A stretch of 44,858 nucleotides of DNA from Desulfobacterales bacterium (lineage in GTDB: Bacteria > Desulfobacterota > Desulfobacteria > Desulfobacterales > JAAELO01): positions 1-44,858 of the forward strand of contig JAAELO010000330.1 in the NCBI GenBank assembly GCA_024226555.1. The letters are read 5' to 3'. A model generated the notes under the pieces. It worked only from the letters and a program-made list of their open reading frames with translations. It did no database searches and was not told the DNA's origin. The position numbers and the translations under genes are program-made. This document shows, in pieces, positions 26,798 to 34,485 of the stretch; positions within the stretch are counted from its first letter, which is position 1; each line of letters begins with the position of its first letter.

Positions 26798-27685
26798 TCA
26801 ATAATTAAAAACACAACAATAATTGTATTTAATTTCTCTGTCCTTTTTCTCAATAATAGCAATTAGTCTATCAAGATGTACTATTTTTAATGGTTTATCA
26901 TAGTTCTCCCAGGTAATATCATCTTGTGTTAGCTGGACGCCATTTGCTATCTTTTTTGCGAGGGTTACATCAACCCTAACCTCTTCAAGATCATTAAGTG
27001 TTTCTGTCATGTCTATTATTTTATCTTCTGAAAGATCAGAAAGCGTTGTACTATTTTTAAGATAAAAACCACTTGCAAATGTTCGTCTTAAATTTCTTAA
27101 AAAACCATAACATCCAAGTGCTTTTCCAATATCAGTACAAAGTGTTCTTATATAGGTGCCTTTAGAGCAGGAGATCTCAAGGATAACAGTTGGTGATTCA
27201 TATTGTAATAAATTTATATAGAAAACATTTATATCCCTTGGAGGCTTAACAACTGGCTTTCCAGATCTTGCAAGTTTATATAGTGGAACACCTTTATGCT
27301 TTAATGCCGAATATACAGGTGGAATTTGTTTTTGTTCGCCAACAAATTTATTAATCGTTTCTGTAAGTTTCTTCTCAGATATTGAAAAATCGGTACATGA
27401 ATTAATTACAGTACCTTCAATATCCTGAGTATCTGTCTCTTTCCCCAACTCAAGTTCTGCTATGTATGTTTTATTATCGTTTAAGAAAAAATTTGAGAGT
27501 TTTGTGGCTTTTCCAAGGCATATAACCATAAGTCCTGTTGCAAATGGATCTAAGGTTCCAGCATGTCCCACTTTTTTGGCATTCAATGCTTTTTTTACTT
27601 TTGAAACAAGTCCTGCTGAACTCAAACCTTCAGGTTTGTCTAAAAGCAAAACTCCATCTATTACTTTTTTCTGACTATTCATCAT
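26798..27685 (-). CDS. truB: tRNA pseudouridine(55) synthase TruB
   Basis: 295 residues. It makes the universal pseudouridine 55 of the T-loop. The catalytic Asp is in KVGHAGTLDPFATGLMVICL. Other family blocks are GVLLLDKPEGLSS, KTYIAELELGKETDTQDIEG and GTYIRTLCTDIG. The C-terminal part is shorter and less conserved. The start (ATG ATG AAT) overlaps the end of rbfA by about 11 bases, so the genes are translationally coupled. Confidence 0.96.
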   Translation of the reverse strand: MMNSQKKVIDGVLLLDKPEGLSSAGLVSKVKKALNAKKVGHAGTLDPFATGLMVICLGKATKLSNFFLNDNKTYIAELELGKETDTQDIEGTVINSCTDFSISEKKLTETINKFVGEQKQIPPVYSALKHKGVPLYKLARSGKPVVKPPRDINVFYINLLQYESPTVILEISCSKGTYIRTLCTDIGKALGCYGFLRNLRRTFASGFYLKNSTTLSDLSEDKIIDMTETLNDLEEVRVDVTLAKKIANGVQLTQDDITWENYDKPLKIVHLDRLIAIIEKKDREIKYNYCCVFNY

Positions 27686-28025
27686 CTTTAACAGATTTTA
27701 GAATTGCATCCATTTTTGAACCATAATCAAAAGAGTCATCATGGATAAACTTAAGCTTTGGTGTAAACCTTATCTTAAGTTCCTTGCCAACTGCCTTTCT
27801 TATAAACCCTGTGGCACTTTTAAATCCCTCTAAAGCTTCTTTCTGGCCTTTTTCTCCGGTATATGTGGTAAAATATATAATAGCTTCTTCCAGATTATCC
27901 GTCATCTTAACCCCTGTAATTGTGGCAAACTCAATGCGTGGGTCATTTACTTTTTTCTGGAGCAAAGCTGAAACTATTTTTTGTATTTGTCCACTTATCC
28001 TCTCTCCTCTGCTAAAGGGTTTCAT
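27675..28025 (-). CDS. rbfA: Ribosome-binding factor A
   Basis: 116 residues, normal for RbfA, a KH-like 30S maturation factor that acts on the 16S 5' end. Motifs: RGERISGQIQKIVSALLQKK, then VNDPRIEFATITGVK and LKFIHDDSFDYGSKMDAILK. AGGAG precedes the ATG. It lies downstream of infB as in most bacteria, but a strong hairpin terminator separates them. Confidence 0.96.
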   Translation of the reverse strand: MKPFSRGERISGQIQKIVSALLQKKVNDPRIEFATITGVKMTDNLEEAIIYFTTYTGEKGQKEALEGFKSATGFIRKAVGKELKIRFTPKLKFIHDDSFDYGSKMDAILKSVKDDE

Positions 28026-28130: not shown

Positions 28131-30959
28131 TTAATCAAGTGTAGGTTTAACCTCATCCATTCTGTAACACTCAATAATATCTTCAGATTTAATATCATTA
28201 TAATTTTCAATTCCGATACCACACTCATAACCATGGTTAACTTCTTTAACATCGTCTTTAAAACGCCTTAAAGAACCTAGTTTACCGTCAAACTTAATAA
28301 TCCCATCACGAAGTAATCTTACATTAAGACCTCTCTCGATCTTACCGTCAGTAATAAACGATCCAGCAATTGAACCCCTCTTAGGAATCACAAATACTTC
28401 TCTTACTTCAGCACGACCTACAACAACCTCATTAAATGTTGACTCCATAAGACCTAAAATTGCATTTTTGATATCTTTTATAGCATCATAAATAACATCA
28501 TAGAATCTCATATCCACATTTTCTTCTTTTACAAGATCGTGGACTTTAGAGCCTGGTCTAACATTGAATCCAAGAATAATTGCATTGGAGACAGCTGCAA
28601 GAGAAACATCTGTTTCTGTAACAGTACCAGTTGCTGAGTGTATTATATTTATTTTAATTTCTTCATTTGTAAGTTTTTGCAGAGATTCTTTTAAAGCTTC
28701 AATAGAACCATGAACATCTGCCCTTATTATAAGGTTAAGATCTTTAATATCACCTTCACTAAGTGTTTCAAAAAGATTTTCAAGACTTACACGGGATGAT
28801 TTTGCAAGTTCAAATGATCTCTGTTTTTTTATTCTATTGCTACTAATCTGTTTAGCACTCTTTTCAGTGGATAAACTAATTAGTTGATCTCCCGCTTCAG
28901 GTACACCAGATAAACCGATAATTTCTGCCGGTATCGAAGGACCAGCACTGTCTATCTGGTTGCCACGGTCATCATTCAGAACTCTTATTCTACCAAAATA
29001 TACACCACAAACAACAGATTGTCCTGTTTTTAATGTTCCATCTTTAACCAGAACTGTTGCTATAGGCCCTCTTCCTGAATCAAGTTTTGATTCAACAACA
29101 AATCCTGAAGCAAGTTTATCGGGATTTGCTCTTAATTCCTGAACTTCTGCCTGCAGAAGAATCATCTCTAAAAGCTCGTCTATTCCCAATCCTGTTTTTG
29201 CAGATACATTGATAAAAATTGCATCACCACCCCAATCTTCAGAAAGTATACCATGATCAGACAACTCTCTTTTAACTCTATCAGGATCTGCATCTTCCTT
29301 ATCCATCTTGTTTACAGCAACAATGATTGGTACTCCAGCGGCTTTTGAGTGGTTAATAGCTTCGATTGTCTGAGGCATAACTCCATCATCAGCAGCAACA
29401 ACCAAAACGACAATATCAGTAACCTGAGCACCTCGGGATCGCATAGCTGTAAAAGCTTCGTGACCAGGAGTATCAAGGAAGACAATTTGTCCTTTATCAG
29501 TATGAACGTTATATGCTCCGATATGCTGAGTGATACCACCTGCTTCTCCATCAGCCACACCAGATTTACGTATTGTATCAAGAAGAGATGTCTTACCATG
29601 GTCGACATGACCCATAATTGTAACAACAGGGGGTCTTTCTTTTAATTGCTCCGGATTATCCTCAACAACAGTGATCAGGTTATCCTCTTCAAATGCTGCT
29701 CTTTCAAGCTCAAACTCAAATTCTGAAGCAACAAGTACAGCAGTATCGAAATCAATAGTCTGATTAACTGTGGCCATAACACCCAAGCCCATTAATTTCA
29801 CTATCATTTCATTTGCTTTTATACCCATTCTTTTGGCAAGTTCAGCAAGAACAATAGTATCATCAATTTTGACTCGCCTCTTAATAGCTTTTGGTGTTGT
29901 GATCTGGGTTTTTTGCCCTGTTTTAGGCTTTTGCTTTCCTCTTTTCCCTTTTCTTCGGGGACCACTATCATAAAGAGCGTTTCCTTCAACAACAGAGCGT
30001 TTTTTGAAAGGCTTCTTTAGAAATTTCTTTTCCCCATTCTCTTCTTCAGTGGTTTTTTTGTCTTTCTTTTTGAATTTTTTACCTTTTTTTTCAGTTGTCT
30101 CAGGAACTTCGGTGACACTTTTGGGTTTTTCTTCAGAAACCTTTTTAACCTGTTTCTTTTTAAATACTCTTTTCCTGTTTGGAGCCTCTTTCTTTTGTTC
30201 TTTTTTCTCTTCTTTTTTAGCTTGTGCCTTTTTGGCTTCCAATTCAAGGTCAGGCAATTTTATTATTTTAGCAGCCTGGAATTTTTTGGCTTTTTTCTTC
30301 TTTTTAGACTGTTTTTTACTCTCTTCTTTTGCAGTCTTCTTTTTAGATGCTTTTTTATCAGCAACTTTCTTTTCAGCTGGTTTTTTCTCGGCTGTTTTCT
30401 TTTCCGTTACCTTTTTTCCAGCAACTTTCTTTTCAGCTTTTTCATCTTCAGCTTTCACATCTTCAGTTTTTTTAGCTTCAGTTTTATCTTCAGTTTTTTC
30501 TTCAGCTATTTCCTTCTCAGAAGTATCATCTTCTACTTTTTTCTTCGGAGCCTTTTTTTCTGCGGCCTTCTTTTTAGCAACTTTCTTTTTAGCAGGTTTT
30601 TCTTCTTGTTCACTTTTGGCTTCTTTTTCCGCTACATCTGGCTCTTTTTCTTTTGCTTCAACAGGTTCCTTTTGAGATTCTTCGCTCTCATCTGGTTTTT
30701 CTTCTACCTCTGGAAGTTCGGAAACTTCCTGCTCTGCTACTTTTTTTCTTCTACGGATAATAGTTGATTTCACGCGTTTTTCTTCAACAACATCCTCTTT
30801 TTTACCAAAGATATGATTTTTTATTTTATGAACAACATCATCATCAAGGGAACTCATGTGGCTCCCTACTTTGATTTTTGCTTCCTTAATTTTATTTAAG
30901 AGAGCTTTGTTTGTCATGCTTAAATCTTTGGCAAGTTCGTAAACCCTGATTTTTGCCAT
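28131..30959 (-). CDS. infB: Translation initiation factor IF-2
   Basis: 942 residues. It delivers initiator tRNA to the 30S subunit and promotes subunit joining. The N-terminal IF2_N motif ([20 protein letters not shown]) is followed by about 250 residues of Lys/Glu/Ala low-complexity linker (AEKKxAEKK-type repeats), then a second N-domain ([20 protein letters not shown]). The GTPase domain has G1 GHVDHGKT, G3 DTPGHEAF, G4 NKMD and G5 SAKTG. Domains II-IV end in [10 protein letters not shown]. An AGGGGTGA site precedes the ATG. It is the third gene of rimP-nusA-infB. The linker is rich in A/T-run codons, so it is a likely site of length variation. Confidence 0.98.
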
Positions 30960-31028: not shown

Positions 31029-32459
31029 TTACTGATCCTGATCATCATCATCAGGATCTTCTGCCTCGTCGACTTCTTCTGCCTCGTCGACTTCTTCTGC
31101 CTCGTCGACTTCTTCTGCCTCGTCGACTTCTTCTGTCTCGTCGACTTCTTCTGTCTCGTCGACTTCTTCTGTCTCTTCAACTTCTTCTGTCTCTTCAACT
31201 TCTGCGGATGCTTCCTCTTCATCTAATTCTATAGCTTTTGCTGAAGCATCGATAATTACCTGAGCATCTTCTTCTTCCATTCCAAGAAGCTGAGCAAGCT
31301 GTTCTGTTGAGACTGAAGCTATATCATCTAAAGATGAATAACCACTTTCAAATAATTTTGTTGCTGAAACAGGTGAGATCTCATCAATACTCATTAATGA
31401 ATCCAGAACGTTTTTAACCTGTGTGCTGTATTTCTCTTCACTCTTAACGTCCAGATGCCAACCAGTGAGTTTTGAGGCTAACCTTACGTTTTGTCCTCTT
31501 TTTCCTATAGCAACAGAAAGAAAATCATCGTGAACAATAACTTCCATCGCTCTATTTTCTTCATCTATTATCACTTTGGAAATCTCAGCCGGAGCAAGAG
31601 CATTGCAAACATATTTAGCTGCATCAAGATTCCAGGGTATAATATCTATTTTTTCTCCACGAAGTTCCTGTACAACATTCTGTACACGACTACCCTTCAT
31701 ACCAACACATGCTCCAACCGGATCAATATCTGCATCTCGGGAGCTTACAGCTATTTTAGCTCTGCTTCCAGGTTCTCTTGCGGCACCTTTTATCTCTACC
31801 AGCCCCTCACTTATTTCAGGAACTTCAGTTTTAAAAAGATTCACTATAAAGTTTGGATGTGTTCTTGATAAAACGATCTGAGGCCCGCGTGATGCTTCCA
31901 TAACTCTCAGGATTAAAGCCCTGATTCTGTCACCACGTCTGTATGATTCATTGGGAAACTGCTCTCTAACAGGAAGAACAGCGTCGGCTTGTCCTAGATT
32001 AACTATTATATCGCTACGATCAATTCTCTGAACAATACCATTTATAATTTCATTTTCCCGATCGATGAAATTCTCATAAATAGCTGTTCTTTCGGCATCT
32101 TTCATTCTTTGTATTATAACCTGCTTGGCAGATTGTGCTGCAATACGACCAAATGTTGATGTATCTACTTTTGTTCCTAAACTATCACCGATTTCACAAT
32201 CAGGGTCTAATTTTCTACCCTCACGAAGGTTGATTTGAAATTCCGGTTCTTCAACCTTTTCAACCACCTCCATAAACTGAAAAACTTCAATGTCATTCAG
32301 TTTTTCATTATACTGAACTTCAATATCTATATTACTTCCAAGTTTTTTTCTGGCAGCTGATGCCAGAGCTTCTTCTAATGTACTAATCAGTGTGTCAGAA
32401 TCGATGCCCTTGTCTTTACTGATTTGATCCACAATACGTTTCATATCTGAAATTAGCAT
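31029..32459 (-). CDS. nusA: Transcription termination/antitermination factor NusA with acidic repeat tail
   Basis: 476 residues. NusA binds RNA polymerase and modulates pausing, termination and antitermination. Order: N-terminal polymerase-binding domain with FGRIAAQSAKQVIIQRM; S1 domain (GIVQRIDRSDIIVNLG); KH1-KH2 (VGACVGMKGSRVQNVVQELR, DDFLSVAIGKRGQNVRLA); one short helical repeat (about 360-415, with ATKLFESGYSSLDDIA); then an acidic tail from about 418, eight tandem copies of VDEAEE-like hexapeptides. The ATG overlaps the rimP stop by 7 bases. A second in-frame ATG five codons in is also possible. Confidence 0.97.
   Translation of the reverse strand: MLISDMKRIVDQISKDKGIDSDTLISTLEEALASAARKKLGSNIDIEVQYNEKLNDIEVFQFMEVVEKVEEPEFQINLREGRKLDPDCEIGDSLGTKVDTSTFGRIAAQSAKQVIIQRMKDAERTAIYENFIDRENEIINGIVQRIDRSDIIVNLGQADAVLPVREQFPNESYRRGDRIRALILRVMEASRGPQIVLSRTHPNFIVNLFKTEVPEISEGLVEIKGAAREPGSRAKIAVSSRDADIDPVGACVGMKGSRVQNVVQELRGEKIDIIPWNLDAAKYVCNALAPAEISKVIIDEENRAMEVIVHDDFLSVAIGKRGQNVRLASKLTGWHLDVKSEEKYSTQVKNVLDSLMSIDEISPVSATKLFESGYSSLDDIASVSTEQLAQLLGMEEEDAQVIIDASAKAIELDEEEASAEVEETEEVEETEEVDETEEVDETEEVDEAEEVDEAEEVDEAEEVDEAEDPDDDDQDQ
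31056..31199 (-). repeat. 18-bp minisatellite in nusA (8 copies)
   Basis: Eight in-frame 18-bp units, each encoding V-(D/E)-E-(A/T)-E-(E/D). From the N-terminal side: two VEETEE, two VDETEE, four VDEA units, with nearly identical DNA toward the 3' end. The unit contains GTCGACGAGGCAGAAGAA, GC-rich for this window. It looks like recent slippage expansion. Confidence 0.9.
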
Positions 32460-32974
32460 ATACTGTCTCCGCTGGTTATATGCGCTTTTTTGACCAAGTG
32501 AAAAGGAATTTCGAACTCCTCTCCGTCAATATTCAAAACTATATTACTATCTTTATAATCTATTAAAACACCTGTAAAATTTTTTCTATCAGAAACAGGT
32601 GAAGTTGTTCTTACTTTTATGGTTTTCCCTTTAAATCGTACAAAGTCTTTCTCTTTTACGAGGGGCCTTTCAATTCCAGGTGATGAAACTTCAAGTCTGT
32701 GTGTTTTTGTGTGTTCATAGTTTACTTCTAAAATATCACTGAGTTCTCTGCTAATCGAGATACAATCATCAAGACCGATACCACCTTCTTTATCAAGGTA
32801 TACTCTTATTATTCTGTTTTCATTTTCATTTACACACTCTACACTTACTAACTCTAAATTTTCAGACTCACAAAGAGGTTCCCCAACAGATAATACATCT
32901 GCGATTATTTTTTCATTGGAAGCACCTGAATAACTATGTCTGGTACCCGAATTTTTTCTTTTCTTTTTCTTCAT
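32453..32974 (-). CDS. rimP: Ribosome maturation factor RimP
   Basis: 173 residues. RimP assists 30S maturation. It starts with a basic tail (MKKKKRKNSGTRHSYSG), a little longer than usual. The two conserved domains follow: LGDCISISRELS-like IGLDDCISISRELSDILE, LEVSSPGIERPL, then the C-terminal SH3-like barrel (FKGKTIKVRT, FTGVLIDYKD). It overlaps nusA by 7 bases as first gene of the operon. The ribosome site is weak (AAGTGA), and a terminator-type hairpin ends about 25 bases upstream, so expression is probably controlled in the leader. Confidence 0.95.
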   Translation of the reverse strand: MKKKKRKNSGTRHSYSGASNEKIIADVLSVGEPLCESENLELVSVECVNENENRIIRVYLDKEGGIGLDDCISISRELSDILEVNYEHTKTHRLEVSSPGIERPLVKEKDFVRFKGKTIKVRTTSPVSDRKNFTGVLIDYKDSNIVLNIDGEEFEIPFHLVKKAHITSGDSIC

Positions 32975-32997
32975 ATTTCACTTTATTTTTGCCCATT

Positions 32998-33019
32998 AAA
33001 AAACGGGCATAAGCCCGTT
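32998..33019 (-). terminator. Leader hairpin T2 before rimP
   Basis: On the minus strand AACGGGC (33019-33013 as the complement of GCCCGTT) pairs with GCCCGTT (33008-33002) around a 4-base loop, followed directly by T6. A nearby GGGC (32994-32991 complement) could pair with the second arm instead, a possible antiterminator. Confidence 0.75.
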
Positions 33020-33078
33020 CCTATTCTTCAAACAAAATTTTTGTGGATTTAGTGAGGATTACAAAATCACATATCTCC

Positions 33079-33115
33079 AAAAAATTTACAAGGAACGACT
33101 CATAAACCTTGTAAA
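33079..33115 (-). terminator. Leader hairpin T1 before rimP
   Basis: TTTACAAGG / CCTTGTAAA (33107-33115 and 33085-33093) with a 13-base loop, followed on the minus strand by a T6 tract. With T2 it makes two successive terminator-like structures between the predicted promoter and rimP. Confidence 0.75.
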
Positions 33116-33142
33116 AGGGTTAAACAACCAAAGTCTCTGCAT
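33086..33142 (-). CDS. Possible 18-residue leader peptide overlapping T1
   Basis: An ATG at 33142 opens the frame MQRLWLFNPFTRFMSRSL, whose stop codon lies in the last stem arm of hairpin T1. Translation through it would disrupt T1. There is no good ribosome site and no homologous leader known to me, so this is a speculative reading. Confidence 0.2.
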   Translation of the reverse strand: MQRLWLFNPFTRFMSRSL

Positions 33143-33196
33143 ATTTAAACAAGAGTTTTAAATCTATTAATATACAGCTACATCAAACATCAGGGA

Positions 33197-33225
33197 TAAA
33201 TACAACATATTATTTCATATGTCAA
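33197..33225 (-). promoter_or_regulatory. Predicted promoter of rimP-nusA-infB
   Basis: Minus strand perfect -35 TTGACA (33225-33220), exact 17-bp spacer, -10 TATTTA (33202-33197). The start point near 33190 gives a leader of about 215 bases containing T1 and T2. Confidence 0.6.
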
Positions 33226-33465
33226 TAAATTATGGGGATTTAGAAAATATCAATAAAAATATTAATTATTTTTACATAAATATTTGAAAAATTAATATTT
33301 TTTATAAATTAGATCTGCTTTTTAATAGTTAGTATTATAAAATTTGAAATACTTAATTTATATGACTGATATAAAATATTACGAGAAATGGTTTATCCTC
33401 TGAATATGTTTTTATATTTCAAGGATAAACCTTTATTGTATAACAGTATTTCTCTATAAAAATAA
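33226..33465. other. Intergenic region after oppF
   Basis: AT-rich and noncoding. One long-loop hairpin, GGTTTATCCT / AGGATAAACC (about 33390-33431), lies after the oppF stop and may end the opp transcript, although it lacks a tight T run. Confidence 0.4.
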
Positions 33466-34485
33466 TTATGCAAACTTTTTAGAGATAAGTTCCTGAACTT
33501 CATCCTTCCTATGACAAGCAACTTTGTGATTCCCAATATCTTCAAGTACAGGTTCTTTTTTCTTACAAAGTTCAATTGCAAATGGACATCTTGTATGAAA
33601 TCTGCACCCTTCAGGCGGATTCAAAGGACTTGGAACATCACCTTTAAGAATTATTCTCTTTTTCTCAATATCAAGATCTGTACTTGGAATACCTGAAAGA
33701 AGTGCATTTGTATATGGATGAACAGGATTCTCGAAAAGCTTCTCAGTCTCAGCAATTTCTACAATTTTTCCAAGATACATAACAGCTATTCTTGTACTTA
33801 TATATTTCACCACAAGAAGGTGATGGGTAACAAACATGTAAGTCAGGTTCAGTTTTTTTCTTAAAGAATCCATCAGATTTAAAATTTGTGCCTGAACAGA
33901 CACATCTAATGCTGATGTTGGTTCATCAAGCACAAGAAATTCAGGATTTGTAGCAAGCGCCCTTGCTACAGCAATTCTCTGCCTTTGTCCACCAGAAAAT
34001 TCATGGGAGTACCTGTAGAGATGATTTCTTGTTAAACCAACCATCTCAAGCAACTCAACAACTCTATCTTCAAGAGCTTTACCTTTAATATTAGTGTTTT
34101 CAATTATAGGTTCGGCAATTATATTTTTAACAAGCATCCTCGGGTTCATCGATGTTGTTGGGTCCTGAAAAACCATCTGAAGTTTACTTCTAAGACCATT
34201 TTTCTTCATGTGTCTTGGCTTCATTCTGGCTATATCATAGGAGTCTTTATGATCTTTAGGATGGAATATAATTTCACCTGATGTTGGATCATGCAGCTTA
34301 ATGATTGCTTTTGATGTTGTGGTTTTCCCGCAACCCGATTCTCCAACAACGCCAAGACACTCACCCCTGTATATATCTAGATCAACTCCATCCAGTGCTT
34401 TTACTGAATTAATCTCTTTTTTGAAAACGCCTCCGTAAATCGGATAGTGTTTTTTTAAATTTTTAAGTTCTAATATTTTTTCCAT
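33466..34485 (-). CDS. oppF: Oligopeptide ABC transporter ATP-binding protein OppF
   Basis: 339 residues. Cytoplasmic ATPase of the peptide importer. Walker A GESGCGKTT, Q-loop MVFQDPTTSMNPR, signature FSGGQRQRIAVARAL, Walker B with D-loop LVLDEPTSALDVS, switch His in MFVTHHLLV. The C-terminal oligopeptide-transporter extension has GCRFHTRCPFAIELC, a cysteine-rich segment that carries an iron-sulfur cluster in some relatives. A GGAG inside the end of oppD lies 5-10 bases before the ATG; the gap to oppD is 5 bases. The first His of the usual THDL motif region reads THHL. Confidence 0.95.
   Translation of the reverse strand: MEKILELKNLKKHYPIYGGVFKKEINSVKALDGVDLDIYRGECLGVVGESGCGKTTTSKAIIKLHDPTSGEIIFHPKDHKDSYDIARMKPRHMKKNGLRSKLQMVFQDPTTSMNPRMLVKNIIAEPIIENTNIKGKALEDRVVELLEMVGLTRNHLYRYSHEFSGGQRQRIAVARALATNPEFLVLDEPTSALDVSVQAQILNLMDSLRKKLNLTYMFVTHHLLVVKYISTRIAVMYLGKIVEIAETEKLFENPVHPYTNALLSGIPSTDLDIEKKRIILKGDVPSPLNPPEGCRFHTRCPFAIELCKKKEPVLEDIGNHKVACHRKDEVQELISKKFA

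What the first reader, a model, noticed from the sequence alone, without database searches (positions are those of the whole stretch)
32975..33225. Tandem terminator-like leader, with overlapping mini-ORF, before rimP-nusA-infB
A near-consensus promoter is followed by two hairpins each ending in a T6 tract within about 190 bases, then rimP. Since NusA itself governs intrinsic termination, the leader could be a feedback sensor. An 18-codon ORF ends inside T1, and an alternative pairing could disarm T2.
Basis: partly seen in the sequence, partly recalled or inferred. Interest (0 to 1): 0.55.

Follow-up and report, generated by a model that had tools for sequence, protein, structure and literature searches.

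The report
Known rimP-nusA leader terminator, one variant
The strong hairpin just before the rimP-nusA-infB genes is a copy of an already described and very widespread early stop signal, by which cells probably limit how much NusA they make; this copy has a few local oddities but is otherwise ordinary.

Summary
Both hairpins are real and lie on the minus strand before rimP (ATG 32974). T2 (AACGGGC-TTAT-GCCCGTT plus T run, 23 nt before the ATG) is the important one. A hairpin of the same pattern stands before rimP in all 103 loci examined in this order (102 relatives plus the window). It is nearly single-copy: of 81 pattern matches in 77 of 106 genomes, 73 lie at rimP. T2 meets the tested features of the 'rimP-leader' terminator (GGGc...gCCC stem) published in 2010, whose authors named NusA as best candidate effector. 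NusA-stimulated leader termination is reported for B. subtilis. The feedback idea is therefore plausible but known, and untested here.

T1 is unlikely to be chance (4 of 1000 shuffles as stable) but is not shared across the order. The 18-codon ORF is chance-level (1190 of 2000 shuffles). The promoter has a perfect -35 but a poor -10. No antiterminator was found.

Oddities: the locus lacks the tRNA-Gly(CCC) found upstream of T2 in 98 of 103 loci, and its T2 has the poorest distal U run of the 103. Verdict: new member of a known kind.

The parts
32998..33021 (-). T2: rimP-leader type intrinsic terminator (stem GGAACGGGC/GCCCGTTTT, TTAT loop, T run 33003-32998)
33079..33115 (-). T1: upstream terminator-like hairpin (9-bp stem, 13-nt loop, T6); not shared across the order
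33086..33142 (-). 18-codon ORF ending inside T1; chance-level, no SD-like run
33197..33225 (-). Possible promoter: TTGACA, 17 nt, TATTTA (perfect -35, -10 with 3 of 6)
32453..32974 (-). rimP
31029..32459 (-). nusA
28131..30959 (-). infB
27675..28025 (-). rbfA
33466..34485 (-). Upstream neighbour: oligopeptide ABC transporter ATPase, same strand; 491 nt lie between it and rimP

Best explanation
T2 is the rimP-leader: a dedicated, nearly single-copy intrinsic terminator directly in front of rimP-nusA-infB-rbfA. Transcription reaching it (from a promoter in the leader, or by read-through from the opp genes) partly stops there and the rest continues into the operon. The most likely control is homeostasis by NusA: more NusA gives more termination at T2 and less rimP-nusA-infB mRNA, without a competing antiterminator. 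Shown here: the hairpin, its position, its presence before rimP throughout the sampled order, its strong preference for rimP, and the lack of a stable competing fold. Inferred: that it terminates in vivo, that NusA is the effector, and that T1 adds a first partial stop in this genome.
For: T2-type core before rimP in 103 of 103 loci examined when 700 nt upstream are searched, 99 of 103 within 300 nt; the same core occurs in 3 of 2060 shuffled regions and 2 of 103 reversed regions. In 101 distinct aligned elements 99.6% of cells keep the pairs, and two pairs show changes on both sides (innermost CG/UA, outer AU/GC). A tighter pattern matched 81 places in 77 of 106 genomes (palindromes counted once): 73 within 400 nt upstream of the RimP match, 4 elsewhere, 4 in genomes without a RimP match; one place in the own genome. 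A covariance model of the element hits just before rimP in 32 of the 62 genomes outside the order that had both a model hit and a RimP match. The published rimP-leader has the same stem motif, position and lack of a larger element, with NusA named best candidate (passages). B. subtilis NusA is autoregulated by NusA-stimulated leader termination (review passage). Only 23 nt separate T2 from the ATG, which leaves no room for a full promoter downstream of T2. No competing fold.
Against: No expression data for this organism. The invariant stem columns are exactly those that the core pattern fixes, so identity at those positions is built in; the informative fact is that every locus matched. The window's T2 lacks the distal U run that 100 of 103 loci keep with at least 3 of 5 T, which may make it weaker or different. 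The covariance model is not rimP-specific at low scores: in the own genome another terminator-like hairpin (C323:12003-12043) scores 35.6 bits against 32.5 for T2, and in 30 of 62 genomes outside the order its hits lie only elsewhere. In 98 of 103 loci a tRNA-Gly lies upstream, so T2 could there also end or trim tRNA transcripts. In 7 of 103 loci T2 is not in the minimum-energy fold of the last 150 nt. NusA as effector rests on other species.
Confidence: 0.75

Rival explanations
1. T1 and T2 are ordinary terminators that only end transcripts of the upstream opp genes; rimP has its own start further down.
For: The opp genes lie upstream on the same strand with no classical terminator directly behind them: the hairpin at 33431-33390 has no T run. 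T1 has no order-wide counterpart.
Against: T2-type hairpins stand before rimP in 103 of 103 loci examined, 98 of them with a tRNA-Gly upstream. Only 23 nt lie between T2 and the ATG.
Confidence: 0.12
2. A two-terminator switch in which translation of the 18-codon ORF or an alternative RNA fold decides termination.
For: The ORF ends inside T1.
Against: Such ORFs occur in 1190 of 2000 shuffles, with no SD-like run. No competing fold. T1 is not shared across the order: 11 of 103 loci have a hairpin that stable against 4.25 expected, six of them a different GCCTTT-type stem.
Confidence: 0.04
3. T2 is an attenuator, but its stem is read by another factor than NusA (RimP, another operon product, or Rho-linked control).
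For: The stem sequence is kept as well as the pairing (with the caveat that the pattern fixes part of it). The 2010 paper mentions RimP as a possible feedback factor. An E. coli rimP 5' UTR plus ORF fusion had decreased expression in a Rho mutant (PMC7815308, passage).
Against: NusA autoregulation by leader termination is reported for B. subtilis, and the 2010 authors judge NusA the best candidate.
Confidence: 0.15

Closest known systems
rimP-leader, Naville and Gautheret 2010 (PMC2965389; passages read)
   Same: Intrinsic terminator before rimP-nusA-infB; GGGc...gCCC stem; T stretch; 4-130 nt from the gene; no larger conserved element; motif tied to rimP.
   Different: In this order the stem mostly reads ACGGGC/GCCCGT, and most members have a second U run after the first; the window's copy lacks that second run. 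Figures and supplements were not seen, so I cannot say whether the published set includes this lineage.
B. subtilis nusA leader attenuation (Mondal et al. 2016: recalled, not held; stated in the review PMC12288461, passage read)
   Same: NusA-stimulated termination in the leader limits transcription into the gene.
   Different: NusA dependence is untested here; T1 in front is extra; T2's hairpin is fairly strong (-14.0 kcal/mol).
Rfam RF01770, gammaproteobacterial rimP leader (family name seen in PMC5955585, passage)
   Same: Position before rimP.
   Different: No match in the window and 0 of 49 genomes (own plus 48 relatives).
E. coli metY-rimP-nusA-infB leader with terminators t1 and t2 (PMC6511841, passages read)
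   Same: Two terminators before rimP; a tRNA gene heads the operon in E. coli, as tRNA-Gly(CCC) does in most relatives of the window.
   Different: The window has no tRNA. The E. coli sequences were not compared here.

Membership tests
rimP-leader (Naville and Gautheret 2010) | Terminator hairpin directly upstream of rimP in a rimP-nusA-infB operon | tested here: met
rimP-leader (Naville and Gautheret 2010) | GGGc(...)gCCC in the stem, followed by a T stretch | tested here: met
rimP-leader (Naville and Gautheret 2010) | 4 to 130 nt between terminator and gene start | tested here: met
   23 nt in the window
rimP-leader (Naville and Gautheret 2010) | Stem motif specific to rimP among terminators | tested here: met
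   One place in the own genome; 73 of 81 places at rimP in 106 genomes. The looser covariance model is less specific.
rimP-leader (Naville and Gautheret 2010) | No larger conserved element and no visible antiterminator | tested here: met
   Low column information outside hairpin, flanking purines and U runs; no competing fold in the window
Rfam RF01770 (gammaproteobacterial rimP leader) | Match to the covariance model | tested here: not met
   Not among the matches; 0 of 49 genomes, with E. coli ringing as control (stricter filters)
Gammaproteobacterial tandem rimP-leader | Second upstream terminator with inverse CCCg(...)cGGG stem and an antiterminator | tested here: not met
   T1 stem is TTTACAAGG/CCTTGTAAA; no competing fold
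NusA-autoregulated leader (B. subtilis type) | Termination in the leader rises with NusA | not testable with these tools
   Needs Term-seq or in vitro transcription

The most novel reading that the evidence does not exclude
This lineage rebuilt its rimP leader: it lost the heading tRNA-Gly(CCC) and the distal U run of T2 and gained a second terminator, T1, so that NusA control is split over two stops. More generally, the conserved GGG/CCC stem with a two-part U run would be a terminator whose sequence, not only its shape, is read by NusA or another operon product.
Probability: 0.25. Interest if true: 0.45.

Novelty: new member of a known kind. Interest (0 to 1): 0.24.

Why it matters
It documents a published but little-studied attenuator in a further bacterial order with clear numbers (103 of 103 loci examined; nearly single-copy), and points to a two-part U run and a heading tRNA-Gly that could be tested. 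For this window it replaces a speculative leader-peptide switch by a simple known one.

Tried and rejected
Mini-ORF as leader peptide: rejected, chance-level. Antiterminator: none found in the window; the GGGC at 32994-32991 could pair with T2's 3' arm over about four pairs only and is made after the terminator (sequence read directly). Rfam: no match in the window at gathering scores; three low-scoring unrelated families at E up to 5. T1 in relatives: hairpins of -5 kcal/mol or better plus T run in 11 of 103 loci, the window included, against 4.25 expected; six of the 11 share a GCCTTT-type stem 110-120 nt before T2 that is not T1's. An earlier run of that scan had a register error that missed T1 itself and is discarded; only its tRNA distances are used. 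tRNA in the window: none. In the own genome the 8 places most like a relative's tRNA-Gly(CCC) are 2 Gly(GCC), 3 Gly(TCC), 2 Val and 1 Pro; the assembly is incomplete (97.95%), so loss is not proven. Hairpin behind opp: one 81% partial copy at C244 and many short weak hits, not pursued. Named genomes: 14 of 50 usable loci had a GGG...CCC...TTTT hairpin near the extrapolated rimP start, without a shuffle control.

Rows dropped: L010 (match at a contig end) from the 104 loci; 3 of 53 named loci as too short; 2 of 103 elements as identical when the alignment was made. Eleven of the 78 genomes searched for RimP had no model hit and were not used. The core pattern fixes GGG, C.CG and TT, so the invariant columns are exactly those built in; the controls are the shuffled and reversed regions.

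Full report
What is there. rimP, nusA, infB and rbfA run on the minus strand. rimP starts at 32974; an oligopeptide transporter ATPase gene on the same strand ends at 33466, so 491 nt lie between them. T1 (33115-33079) and T2 (33021-32998) are present as described. T2 lies 23 nt from the start codon. A hairpin like T2 arose in 0 of 5000 shuffles. T1 is unlikely to be chance: 1 of 5000 with its own 9-bp/T6 rule, 95 of 5000 with a looser one, 4 of 1000 as stable. The 18-codon ORF is what AT-rich sequence gives (1190 of 2000 shuffles). The promoter claim is weak: a perfect -35, a -10 of 3 in 6, and fewer promoter-like sites in the region than in shuffles.

Conservation. RimP was found in 104 of the 116 genomes searched, the window's own included. 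The others are of the same order; none of the same family was among them. One of the 104 loci (L010) ends at a contig edge. In the other 103 (66 families by the labels), a hairpin of the T2 type stands before rimP: 84 by a narrow pattern within 250 nt, 99 by the core pattern within 300 nt, and 103 when 700 nt are searched. The last four lie 332-341 nt before the extrapolated start, which may be misplaced there. Shuffled regions gave 3 of 2060 and reversed regions 2 of 103. In the alignment of 101 distinct elements 99.6% of cells keep the pairs, with changes on both sides at two pairs. The fully invariant columns are those that the pattern fixes, so they carry no extra weight; positions it left free, such as the A before C and the C/G closing pair, are also mostly constant (AU 88 and CG 98 of 101). 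The loop is free in sequence and mostly 4 nt (74 of 103).

Two-part U run. Most relatives have a second T run after the first: 100 of 103 loci have at least 3 T in positions 8-12 of the tail, two have 2, and the window alone has 1. Some elements of named Clostridia and Gammaproteobacteria look alike.

Specificity. The pattern ACGGGC-N3-7-GCCCGTTTT occurs at 81 places in 77 of 106 genomes, palindromes counted once. Of these, 73 lie within 400 nt upstream of the RimP match, 4 elsewhere, and 4 in genomes without a RimP match. A stricter pattern has one place in the own genome. A covariance model of the element hits 76 of 247 genomes of the phylum, of which 67 are outside the order. Of these 67, 62 had a RimP match; in 32 a hit lies just before rimP, and in 30 hits lie only elsewhere. 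In the own genome the model's best hit is another terminator-like hairpin (35.6 bits, C323), ahead of T2 at 32.5, so the model is only a rough tool.

Context. In 98 of 103 loci a tRNA-Gly(CCC) stands upstream of T2 (93 within 400 nt of the extrapolated rimP start), with a median of 147 nt between tRNA and T2. The window and four relatives (L117, L123, L141, L144) have none in the stretch searched and still have T2. The own genome showed no tRNA-Gly(CCC) among 8 similar places. The arrangement recalls the metY gene at the head of the E. coli operon.

Mechanism. In the isolated leader T2 forms with probability 0.999 and T1 with about 0.97; when T2 is forbidden nothing replaces it. In 96 of 103 loci T2 is in the minimum-energy fold of the last 150 nt. 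A plain attenuator without antiterminator fits. The best documented control of such a leader is NusA-stimulated termination, stated for B. subtilis in a review (PMC12288461, passage; the primary paper is not held). Naville and Gautheret proposed NusA for the rimP-leader in 2010 (PMC2965389, passages). That NusA acts on T2 here is inference.

Known or new. T2 meets each tested feature of the published rimP-leader and does not match Rfam RF01770, named in PMC5955585 as the gammaproteobacterial rimP leader. Listings of searches for 'rimP-leader' (2 papers), rimP/nusA/termination words (11), rimP/terminator/Desulfo/leader/nusA (9) and tRNA-Gly/rimP/nusA/operon (0) showed no title or abstract on this lineage's leader; most of those papers were not opened, and subscription papers are mostly missing from the library. 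I file it as a new member of a known kind.

Noticed in passing
Loci L004-L032 and L086-L159, upstream of rimP: A tRNA-Gly(CCC) gene lies upstream of rimP in 98 of 103 loci of the order, as metY does in E. coli; the window lacks it and no copy was seen among 8 similar places in its genome.
   Followed up: partly
window 33390-33431, minus strand: Strong hairpin (GGTTTATCCTT...AGAGGATAAACC) behind the opp genes without a T run; an 81% partial copy lies at G000:C244:19877-19943, and short weak matches elsewhere.
   Followed up: partly
window 31029-31245, minus strand: NusA carries a long acidic tail of repeated EEVDEAEEVDEA-like units behind its last recognised domain.
   Followed up: no
window 29960-30810, minus strand: IF2 has a long lysine- and glutamate-rich repetitive N-terminal part.
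   Followed up: no
Elements of alignment A1, positions 7-12 after the stem: The U tract comes in two runs split by one or two other bases in most relatives; some Clostridia and Gammaproteobacteria look alike.
   Followed up: partly
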